Shown piece by piece: positions 19,424 to 21,192 of a DNA stretch of 33,930 bases. This stretch comes from a virus. Within the stretch, counting starts at the first letter, position 1. Every line of letters starts with the position of its first letter. The position numbers and the translations under genes are program-made. A model generated the notes under the pieces. It did not search any database, was not told where the DNA came from, and worked only from the letters and a program-made list of their open reading frames with translations. The DNA lies in the IMG/VR virus record IMGVR_UViG_3300032224_000028, positions 1 to 33,930 of that record, one strand, 5' to 3'.

Positions 19424-19696
19424 ATGGATACTAAATTAAAACTCACAGACACAGCAATTATTGACCTTTTAGGTGGTACTGCAAAGGTAGCAAGAATGTG
19501 CAAAGTAGACCCAGCAGCCGTATCTAATTGGCGTATAAGGGGTATACCAGCCGATAAATTTATGCTTTTAGGAGCAAGGATTGAGGAAGCTAGTCATGGG
19601 TTAATTACTAGACAAGACTTGTTTCCTACTGCCTGGCATTTAGTATGGCCTGAGTTGTTACCAAAAAACAACGCATTTGGGGTTCAAGATGAATAA
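19424..19696 (+). CDS. YdaS/Cro-like helix-turn-helix regulator
   Basis: 90 residues. Residues 8-45 form a helix-turn-helix (LTDTAIIDLLGGTAKVARMC, then KVDPAAVSNWRIRGIPADKF). The tail with ITRQDLFP and W-x-x-x-WPEL is typical of YdaS-type prophage regulators. It is the first rightward gene, directly beside the palindrome at 19333, so it probably represses one or both divergent promoters. No strong ribosome binding site is seen. Whether it acts as Cro or as an antitoxin-like repressor cannot be told from sequence. Confidence 0.75.
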   Translation: MDTKLKLTDTAIIDLLGGTAKVARMCKVDPAAVSNWRIRGIPADKFMLLGARIEEASHGLITRQDLFPTAWHLVWPELLPKNNAFGVQDE

Positions 19697-20462
19697 ACCC
19701 CATATTGTTGCTTTCGGGGGTGGTGTAGACAGTACGGCTATGATTCTTGGTCTTTACGAATCTAACCGACCAATAGACTTAATATTATTTGCCGATACTG
19801 GTGGAGAAAGACCAGAAACCTATGCCCATATTGAAAACTTTAGCAAATGGCTTGCAAACAAAGGGCTTCCTGAAATTACTATTGTAAGAAAAGTACGCAA
19901 AGATGGTAGCTTAGAAACATTAGAACAAGAGTGCCACAGACGACATAACTTACCGTCTATTGCTTATGGTTTTAAATCATGCTCTCAAAAGCACAAAATA
20001 GCTCCACAAGACAAGTTTTTAAATCATTGGCAACCAGCTATTGAATATTGGAAAACAGGCTTAAAATGCGTTAAATACATTGGGTATGATGCTGGTGAAT
20101 CACATAGAGCTGACAATGCTGCAAAGCGTGATGACCCTAAATACGACTACGAATACCCATTAATTGAATGGCAATGGGATAGGCAAGATTGTTTAGACAT
20201 TATTGCAAAACATGGTATTGCCAATGTTGGCAAATCAGCTTGCTTTTTTTGCCCATCTTCTCGCCCAAAAGAAATTATTGATTTATATGAAAAACATCCA
20301 GACTTAGCACAAAGAGCGCTAAACATTGAGAAACAAGCAGAATTGACTTCAATCAAGGGATTAGGCCGTAATTACGCTTGGTCAGATGTAATTTTAATGC
20401 ACAAATCACAAATGACATTGCCTTTTGTGGGGTTTGATTTGCCTTGCGATTGCACAGAATAA
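19689..20462 (+). CDS. PAPS reductase / adenine nucleotide alpha-hydrolase family protein
   Basis: 257 residues from ATG 19689, which overlaps the HTH gene by 8 bases; GGGG lies upstream. The PP-loop is FGGGVDSTA (residues 9-17), followed by FADTGGERPETYAH, the usual second block. Cysteines C82, C98, C127, C168, C185 and C188 plus the final DLPCDCTE could hold an iron-sulphur cluster or zinc, as in DndC- or sulfurtransferase-like members. The family activates a substrate with ATP for sulphur or amide transfer. In phages it is often found with DNA or RNA modification, but the substrate here is unknown. Confidence 0.75.
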   Translation: MNKPHIVAFGGGVDSTAMILGLYESNRPIDLILFADTGGERPETYAHIENFSKWLANKGLPEITIVRKVRKDGSLETLEQECHRRHNLPSIAYGFKSCSQKHKIAPQDKFLNHWQPAIEYWKTGLKCVKYIGYDAGESHRADNAAKRDDPKYDYEYPLIEWQWDRQDCLDIIAKHGIANVGKSACFFCPSSRPKEIIDLYEKHPDLAQRALNIEKQAELTSIKGLGRNYAWSDVILMHKSQMTLPFVGFDLPCDCTE

Positions 20463-20764
20463 AAATGTAGTACACTCACATTCCTATCTTGAGGCTCTAA
20501 CGACATACCAGGGGATAGGATTAACAGCGCTACTGGGGGTAATGGTTGAAACAGCGCAATATAGGTGGCGAAGTTAGTGCCTATACCATGCAAGACTGAC
20601 GGGTTAGCGATTCCTCAATGGAAGAACTATGAAGGCAACCTAGGTAGGCTAGGTTCGCTCAAACCTCTTGGAAGTTGTATTTTAACAACTAAGGATAAAT
20701 ACTAATAGACTTTAAAGACTAATCTTTTTAACCTATGGTTGTTGTTTAACTAAAGGGGAATTAC
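20463..20764 (+). ncRNA. Candidate structured non-coding RNA region (302 bases, gene-free)
   Basis: No useful open frame exists on the plus strand. Helices seen: TCCTATC 20482-20488 with GATAGGA 20514-20520 (7 bp); GCGCT 20527-20531 with AGCGC 20553-20557; TATAGG 20560-20565 with CCTATA 20580-20585; AACCTA 20637-20642 with TAGGTT 20650-20655; AGTTGT 20673-20678 with ACAACT 20685-20690. In addition TTGAGG 20489-20494 can pair with CCTCAA 20613-20618 and CTAAC 20497-20501 with GTTAG 20603-20607. This crosses the first helix and implies a pseudoknot. A weak AAAGA-CTAA-TCTTT hairpin lies at 20714-20727. Not a tRNA or any riboswitch I recognise; an origin or leader element remains possible. Confidence 0.5.
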
Positions 20765-21076
20765 ATGAAAGATTTATTAGGTGCTTGTTTATTAGGTGCA
20801 GTATTAGGTGCAATGTTTGCTTATGGCATACCAGCTAAAGCACAGACCATTCCAATGACTAATGCCCAAGGTTATAATGTGGGTACAATACAAATTAACG
20901 GCAAAACAGCTCAGTTTGTAAATCAAATGGGCGTTACTACTCAAACAGCTACTTTTTATCCAGGTCAAATTGTTATTGCGACCCCACAAGGCGTAACTAC
21001 TGCGGTGGTTGGCAATACAGGCTACTCAGTACCACCAAGTCCAACTACAATACCAAGCGTAAGGGTTATGCAATGA
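20765..21076 (+). CDS. Secreted/periplasmic small protein with signal peptide
   Basis: 103 residues; TAAAGGGGAATTAC precedes ATG 20765. A hydrophobic N-terminus (LLGACLLGAVLGAMFAYG) ends in AKA, a good signal peptidase I site before Q27. The mature part is short, beta-prone, Thr/Val/Gln-rich, with repeated IQINGKTAQFVN and YPGQIVIATPQGVTT segments and a proline-rich end. Phages rarely encode exported non-lysis proteins in early units, so a role at the envelope such as superinfection exclusion is possible; there is no direct evidence. Confidence 0.65.
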   Translation: MKDLLGACLLGAVLGAMFAYGIPAKAQTIPMTNAQGYNVGTIQINGKTAQFVNQMGVTTQTATFYPGQIVIATPQGVTTAVVGNTGYSVPPSPTTIPSVRVMQ

Positions 21077-21192
21077 GTTTTACAATCATGCAGCATGATG
21101 GCATGAAAGTAATTCAATGGTTCTTTAATATAGATGAACTTATTAAAGCAATGATTAATAACCCACTTGACAGGTATCACAGAAATGTTTGA
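21073..21192 (+). CDS. 39-residue hypothetical protein
   Basis: ATG 21073 overlaps the preceding stop (ATGA) and the frame ends at TGA 21190-21192, overlapping the next start. The product MSFTIMQHDGMKVIQWFFNI, then DELIKAMINNPLDRYHRNV, is amphipathic. Coupling on both sides supports translation; function unknown. Confidence 0.5.
   Translation: MSFTIMQHDGMKVIQWFFNIDELIKAMINNPLDRYHRNV

What the first reader, a model, noticed from the sequence alone, without database searches (positions are those of the whole stretch)
20463..20764. Candidate pseudoknotted structured RNA in the rightward early unit
Three hundred gene-free bases in a genome that otherwise packs genes edge to edge. I can pair at least five local helices (positions given in the feature) and two long-range ones: TTGAGG 20489-20494 with CCTCAA 20613-20618, and CTAAC 20497-20501 with GTTAG 20603-20607. 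The long-range pair directly abuts and crosses the 7-bp helix 20482-20488/20514-20520, which is the geometry of a folded RNA core rather than chance hairpins. It lies between the PAPS-reductase-like gene and a secreted protein gene, on the coding strand. I do not recognise the family. An origin of replication is the main alternative.
Basis: partly seen in the sequence, partly recalled or inferred. Interest (0 to 1): 0.72.

Follow-up and report, generated by a model that had tools for sequence, protein, structure and literature searches.

The report
Phage noncoding RNA with doubled tag
This stretch is a real folded RNA gene of a named but unexplained family (Rfam Betaproteobacteria-1); its previously unmodelled end carries the same short variable word twice, and related phages fill the same spot with quite different folded RNAs, as if one job could be done by several unrelated RNAs.

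Summary
The RNA is real. Rfam RF02932 (Betaproteobacteria-1, function unknown) matches window 20481-20604 at 93 bits (cut-off 49). Homologues from well over 100 phage contigs and several Burkholderiales chromosomes extend it to about 20481-20680. Covariation over 52 diverse copies supports an interlaced core of four helices, two of them pseudoknots (90.7% of cells paired; score 0.57 against 0.16 shuffled).

New: 3' of the Rfam model lies a domain with a 5-12-nt purine-rich word present twice (R1 in a loop, R2 at the 3' end). It differs between phages but changes in concert (z = 24 against swapped copies) and has no partner inside the RNA. Identity in RNA means R1 is complementary to R2's template DNA, so my preferred but unproven mechanism is a self-directed R-loop, as with ColE1 RNA II.

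Also new: related phages carry unrelated structured RNAs (C, D, E) in the same slot, usually behind a shared pseudoknotted leader (A). None of the four matches Rfam, and no B/C/E pair co-occurred in any record tested. The window has B without A.

The parts
20481..20680 (+). Whole RNA B gene (RF02932 plus its 3' domain), approximate ends
   Evidence: Rfam match 20481-20604; conservation continues to R2 in >100 homologues; sequence 3' of R2 is not conserved and is AT-rich.
20471..20476 (+). Possible -10 hexamer (TACACT) just 5' of the RNA; weak in the window
   Evidence: Homologues without leader RNA A have e.g. TTGCAA-16/18-TAAGAT or TATAGT at this place; the consensus scanner lists no promoter here in the window. 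Inference.
20482..20488 (+). P1 5' strand (with 20514-20520)
20514..20520 (+). P1 3' strand
   Evidence: As above.
20527..20531 (+). P2 5' strand (with 20553-20557)
   Evidence: All five pairs have changes on both sides, 87% of cells paired.
20553..20557 (+). P2 3' strand
20542..20546 (+). P3 5' strand inside the P2 loop (pseudoknot with 20585-20589)
   Evidence: All five pairs have changes on both sides, 82% of cells paired.
20585..20589 (+). P3 3' strand
20561..20565 (+). P4 5' strand (with 20580-20584)
   Evidence: 94% of cells paired; three pairs with changes on both sides, two invariant.
20580..20584 (+). P4 3' strand
20573..20578 (+). P5 5' strand in the P4 loop (pseudoknot with 20595-20600)
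   Evidence: 99% of cells paired; crosses P3 and P4; conserved U-G pair.
20595..20600 (+). P5 3' strand
20564..20573 (+). Invariant block GGTGGCGAAG in the P4/P5 region
   Evidence: Invariant partly by selection, since it was the search pattern, but it is also in the Rfam consensus.
20605..20607 (+). P6 5' strand (with 20627-20629), hairpin whose loop holds R1; only 3 bp here, 3-5 bp in relatives
   Evidence: Own vs swapped z = 10.
20627..20629 (+). P6 3' strand
20607..20610 (+). P8 5' strand in the P6 loop (pairs 20655-20658)
   Evidence: Own vs swapped z = 6; shares base 20607 with P6 in the window, so the exact register is uncertain.
20613..20624 (+). R1, first copy of the variable repeat (CCTCAATGGAAG)
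   Evidence: R1=R2 identity: mean 6.7 nt own vs 4.0 swapped, z = 23.7, 0 of 300.
20637..20643 (+). P7 hairpin 5' strand (with 20649-20655)
   Evidence: Own vs swapped z = 13.
20649..20655 (+). P7 hairpin 3' strand; 20655-20658 also forms the P8 3' strand
20664..20674 (+). R2, second copy of the variable repeat at the RNA's 3' end (CCTCTTGGAAG)

Best explanation
Shown: this is a stand-alone noncoding RNA gene, a member of Rfam RF02932. It has an interlaced double-pseudoknot core and a 3' domain that presents one short, variable, purine-rich word twice: R1 in a hairpin loop and R2 at the 3' end. In these phages it occupies a slot that holds one of several unrelated structured RNAs. Inferred, most likely mechanism: because R1 equals R2, R1 RNA is complementary to the template DNA strand at R2. 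The folded transcript would use R1 to seize the template at its own 3' end and make a stable R-loop next to AT-rich DNA. There it would prime or license phage DNA replication, or otherwise mark that site, as the upstream loop of ColE1 RNA II does at its origin. The core would be the scaffold that holds R1 in reach. Identity and fold: about 0.95. R-loop step: about 0.3.
For: Rfam match well above cut-off. Core covariation 0.572 vs 0.162 shuffled, 0/500, and at most 0.163 when slid. R1=R2 in concert (z = 23.7) with a negative control at z = -1.5. R has no partner inside the RNA (z about 0 against three regions, -2.6 against P7) and no anti-R excess in cis, leaving a partner outside the RNA: its own template DNA or a trans partner. 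R is 77% purine against 58% for the RNA, favourable for RNA:DNA hybrids. DNA just 3' of R2 is 8-15 points richer in AT than its surroundings over the first 100 nt. Replication neighbourhood: replication-initiator-like gene shortly downstream in the window, directly after primase in Acidovorax phage AP1. No co-occurrence of B with C or E in the records tested, which would suit replicon types. Masukata and Tomizawa 1990 on the persistent RNA-template hybrid was seen only as a reference in PMC11012335; its mechanism is from my own knowledge.
Against: Paraburkholderia and Caballeronia carry copies among ordinary chromosomal genes, with R1=R2 kept; a replication primer is not expected there. AT-richness 3' of the RNA could simply be intergenic sequence. 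Window GC skew shows no origin signal beyond coding direction. Unrelated RNA C, in the same slot, shows no R1=R2 coupling by inspection. No expression, R-loop or replication data exist here.
Confidence: 0.33

Rival explanations
1. Trans-acting regulatory RNA with a duplicated seed: the core displays two identical recognition words that base-pair with the same outside RNA or DNA (host, rival phage or own mRNA), with R changing as the target changes.
For: R1 and R2 both look exposed and lack an internal partner; stand-alone chromosomal copies, mostly convergent with the next gene; R differs between close relatives. Multi-seed sRNAs are known (own knowledge: LhrC, RsaE).
Against: No target found; anti-R is not enriched in the phages' own DNA. 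Exclusivity with C and E would be odd for an add-on regulator.
Confidence: 0.3
2. Early-transcription control RNA in the manner of HK022 put or EAR: it acts on RNA polymerase in cis to modify termination in the early operon.
For: The window copy sits between a Cro-like gene and a replication-initiator-like gene, where lambdoid phages keep nutR/tR1. Leader RNA A ends in a terminator that must be passed to reach the next RNA, and B copies behind RNA A lack a promoter of their own.
Against: Chromosomal copies mostly face a convergent gene, so there is no operon to control; downstream genes differ widely among phages. R1=R2 has no role in this model.
Confidence: 0.12
3. Mobile RNA-guided element: R1 is a guide and R2 the adjacent target, as in IS110 bridge RNA or a mobile intron.
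For: R1 in a loop matches DNA at the 3' boundary; contexts vary; the same slot carries different RNAs in related phages.
Against: No recombinase or reverse transcriptase among the neighbours scanned. R1 and R2 keep changing together at what looks like one and the same locus (L093 vs L111), so identity is not just an insertion footprint. No Rfam intron match.
Confidence: 0.08
4. Cis-regulatory leader or riboswitch of the downstream gene.
For: The RNA precedes a gene on the same strand in the window.
Against: 111 downstream ORFs fall into 59 clusters; chromosomal copies often face a gene on the opposite strand.
Confidence: 0.04
5. DNA-level structure only (double-strand or single-strand origin).
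For: Replication-gene neighbourhood.
Against: Core pair column 65-89 is U-G in 49 of 52 sequences; it would be A-C on the other strand, pointing to RNA of this strand. Copies without RNA A have promoter-like hexamers just upstream.
Confidence: 0.06

Closest known systems
Rfam RF02932 Betaproteobacteria-1 RNA
   Same: Full-length model match at 93 bits; P1, P2 and P5 helices; conserved GGUGGCGAAG block; found in Betaproteobacteria.
   Different: The Rfam model is 120 nt and scores three nested helices. Here P3 and P4, the 3' domain (P6, P7, P8) and the R1=R2 pair are added. I could not read the paper I believe may be its source, so whether its authors drew the pseudoknots is unknown.
ColE1 RNA II replication preprimer
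   Same: Works-like comparison only: a structured transcript with a loop sequence repeated near its 3' end, able to pair with template DNA.
   Different: No sequence or fold homology; no RNase H site or antisense RNA I shown; chromosomal copies exist.
IS110 bridge RNA
   Same: A guide in a loop matches DNA at the element boundary.
   Different: No recombinase found nearby; guide and flank co-vary at one locus; different fold.
HK022 put RNA
   Same: Structured RNA in an early operon near cro and replication genes.
   Different: Much larger; stand-alone chromosomal copies; no test of antitermination. Comparison from own knowledge.

Membership tests
RF02932 Betaproteobacteria-1 | Covariance-model score above the curated cut-off | tested here: met
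   93.2 bits vs 49.4, positions 1-120 of 120.
RF02932 Betaproteobacteria-1 | Conserved core helices with covariation | tested here: met
   P2 and P5 of the model, plus P3 and P4; 0 of 500 shuffles.
RF02932 Betaproteobacteria-1 | Occurrence in Betaproteobacteria or their phages | tested here: inconclusive
   Family: 17 of 17 genomes reached by pattern hits carry it, mostly Burkholderiales; 1 of 200 sampled genomes of the phylum; Acidovorax phage AP1. The window's own host is not known.
ColE1 RNA II-type preprimer | Upstream loop identical to the sequence near the 3' end (pairs with template DNA) | tested here: met
   R1=R2, z = 23.7. Only an analogy of arrangement.
ColE1 RNA II-type preprimer | Persistent RNA-DNA hybrid, RNase H processing, replication start at the site | not testable with these tools
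   Needs an experiment.
IS110 bridge RNA | Adjacent IS110-family recombinase | tested here: not met
   Neighbours scanned in the window and in chromosomal loci show none.
Group I intron | Match to the intron model | tested here: not met
   Only RF02932 found in the window and in 16 other loci.
Cis-regulatory leader | Homologous downstream genes | tested here: not met
   59 clusters among 111 downstream ORFs.
HK022 put RNA | Suppresses downstream terminators in cis | not testable with these tools
   No expression data.
tRNA/tmRNA | ARAGORN match | tested here: not met
   None in the window.

The most novel reading that the evidence does not exclude
Small phages, probably of freshwater Betaproteobacteria, carry one exclusive slot for a large structured RNA. 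It is filled by any of at least four unrelated folds (B = Betaproteobacteria-1; C, D and E unknown to Rfam), often behind one shared pseudoknotted leader (A). Unrelated RNAs thus do the same job, and in B that job is directed by a self-matching variable word that targets the RNA to its own DNA.
Probability: 0.3. Interest if true: 0.88.

Novelty: new member of a known kind. Interest (0 to 1): 0.62.

Why it matters
RF02932 has a name but no known function. The concerted R1=R2 repeat gives a concrete handle: it predicts what the RNA touches and can be tested by changing one copy, the other, or both. The slot suggests that several large unrelated RNAs, three of them and their shared leader absent from Rfam, serve one phage function, which makes that function open to swap experiments. 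If the R-loop model holds, it would be an RNA-directed start site in tailed phages built like a ColE1 origin.

Tried and rejected
Folding energy as evidence: not significant. A partner for R inside the RNA or its reverse complement in the phage DNA: none. Group I intron, suggested by a resemblance to the Azoarcus P8/J8-7 region recalled from memory: no Rfam support. Upstream genes interrupted by the RNA, as an intron would: the window's PAPS-reductase-like gene (261 aa) looks complete, so not pursued. R1=R2 in RNA C: not seen (the script parsed only 4 cases, so this rests on reading the alignment). GC skew of the window: uninformative. Genome-collection pattern hits were mostly chance, as expected for 16 fixed bases in 257 Gb. 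The phages collection held one distant match for an L034 query and none for the window's own sequence. Literature for RF02932 and a reading of Weinberg 2017: nothing held.

Full report
WHAT IS THERE. Window 20463-20764 lies between a PAPS-reductase-like gene (19677-20462) and a small ORF (20765-21076). Around it are a Cro-like DNA-binding gene (19424-19696), an Erf-like recombinase and an exonuclease on the other strand, and a replication-initiator-like gene at 21167. Rfam RF02932, Betaproteobacteria-1 RNA, matches 20481-20604 on the + strand over its whole 120-position model at 93.2 bits; the cut-off is 49.4. No other Rfam family, tRNA or tmRNA matches. No paper on this family could be found or read.

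HOMOLOGUES. The genome-collection scan gave mostly chance hits, but real copies occur in Burkholderia, Paraburkholderia, Caballeronia, Achromobacter, Xenophilus and others, one to four per genome. In a sample of 200 genomes of the phylum only the starting genome had it. Acidovorax phage AP1 carries one directly after its primase gene, unannotated.

FOLD OF THE CORE. On 52 diverse sequences four helices were counted: P2 20527-20531/20553-20557, P3 20542-20546/20585-20589, P4 20561-20565/20580-20584, P5 20573-20578/20595-20600. Cells paired are 90.7% against 67.1% shuffled, and the covariation score is 0.572 against 0.162; no shuffle of 500 reached either. Sliding the partners by 1-3 columns leaves at most 0.163. 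P3 crosses P2, and P5 crosses P3 and P4, so the core is an interlaced double pseudoknot. Minimum folding energy is not better than shuffled, as can happen when pseudoknots cannot be scored.

Among 33 sequence variants of the window's clade, TTGAGG/CCTCAA keeps its 4-bp core in 15, and CTAAC/GTTAG is complete in 3. Family-wide, the P1 loop pairs with the 3' domain no better than swapped partners. I reject both.

THE 3' DOMAIN AND THE REPEAT. Conservation runs past the Rfam model to about 20680. In 88 declustered sequences, helices P6, P7 and P8 pair better within a sequence than between sequences (z = 10, 13 and 6), and a word of 5-12 nt occurs twice: R1 in the P6 loop (window 20613-20624) and R2 right after P7 (20664-20674). 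Mean identity is 6.69 nt own against 4.02 swapped (z = 23.7, 0 of 300); a control between R1 and the P7 hairpin gives z = -1.5. The word differs between clades, for example AACGGGCATGG, AAAGGTATCAT, TCCAGCATTG, GGTTCATG, TCAGTCAGA, and between close relatives. In the window's clade the tetrad at the start of R is the same in both copies in 29 of 33 variants while itself varying (CCTC, CCGC, CCGT, CCGA, CCAG). R has no partner in the RNA, and its reverse complement is not enriched in the phage DNA. It is 77% purine against 58% for the RNA, and DNA just 3' of it is AT-rich.

STAND-ALONE GENE. Some copies without the leader described below have promoter-like hexamers just upstream, such as TTGCAA-16/18-TAAGAT, though in the window itself these are weak. 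The mean score of that group is only slightly above shuffled (13.8 against 13.4), so this rests on individual examples. Downstream genes are diverse: 59 clusters among 111 ORFs. Chromosomal copies in Paraburkholderia and Caballeronia lie among dehydrogenase, transporter, H-NS and similar genes, mostly convergent with the next gene. It is therefore not a leader of one gene.

THE SLOT. Relatives of the flanking genes show the same intergenic place holding RNA B, another RNA, a tRNA-Thr, or nothing of the kind. C has 12 of 32 and E 11 of 24 predicted pairs with compensatory changes; E reaches 0.436 against 0.115 shuffled. These structures were predicted from the same alignments, which favours them. 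None matches Rfam at the gathering threshold, and one copy each of E and C finds nothing credible at relaxed thresholds. D is known from few loci and was not analysed. In the records tested, none of 32 carrying C or E has RF02932, none of 30 carrying B has the exact E motif, and none of 29 carrying B plus 5 carrying E has the exact C motif. No chance expectation was computed and the E and C tests used exact motifs, so exclusivity is suggestive rather than proven.

LEADER RNA A. B, C, D and E are often preceded by one element: 52 of 245 B, 92 of 128 C, 54 of 133 E and 5 of 5 D loci, counted with a simple detector and not declustered. It has a 5' hairpin whose loop pairs with a bulge in the 3' arm of a long hairpin that ends as an intrinsic terminator. 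On 28 sequences 97.3% of cells pair, and covariation is 0.380 against 0.159 shuffled; the pseudoknot helix pairs in 98.5% of cells with changes on both sides in 6 of 7 pairs. A model built from it finds it in 14 of 23 records tested and not in the window. B copies behind A have no promoter of their own, so B there is presumably reached by reading past A's terminator (inference).

MECHANISM. Two identical words in one RNA, kept identical while changing, need a partner that each can bind. That partner is outside the RNA. The simplest self-contained one is the template DNA of R2, which is complementary to R1. This is the arrangement of ColE1 RNA II; Masukata and Tomizawa 1990 was seen only as a reference in PMC11012335, and its mechanism is from my own knowledge. 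Purine-rich R, AT-rich DNA 3' of R2, replication neighbours and the apparent exclusivity of slot RNAs fit; chromosomal copies among ordinary genes do not. I give this about 0.3 and a trans-acting RNA with a duplicated seed about the same.

NOVELTY. The window RNA is a member of a named family. Its 3' domain and concerted repeat are not in the Rfam model; the leader and the alternative RNAs are not in Rfam at all. Whether the family's original description drew the pseudoknots I could not check.

Noticed in passing
L472 948-1095 (-); L332 1126-1274; L277 3253-3402; model R1: RNA A: promoter-led leader with a 5' hairpin pseudoknotted into the 3' arm of a terminator hairpin, placed before RNA B, C, D or E. 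Not in Rfam. A second pairing between the linker and the apical loop is visible by eye but was not tested.
   Followed up: partly
   Followed up: partly
   Followed up: partly
L275 after 3426; L322: RNA D, a further candidate structured RNA behind RNA A, five raw loci found.
   Followed up: no
L291, L292 3271-3344; L293 3242-3315: A tRNA-Thr (TGT) stands directly after the PAPS-reductase-like gene in place of the slot RNA; at least one of these phages has RNA A elsewhere in the record.
   Followed up: partly
L592 4001-4139 (Acidovorax phage AP1, OM049504.1 11907-12045): Unannotated RNA B directly after the primase gene of an isolated phage; a handy laboratory system.
   Followed up: partly
L593-L597, L242-L266: Chromosomal RNA B copies in Paraburkholderia and Caballeronia outside prophages, two or three on one contig in some, with R1=R2 kept.
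   Followed up: partly
L197, L205, L223, L129: A divergent Burkholderia type of the RNA (GATAGAGCC core) whose 3' domain looks different.
   Followed up: no
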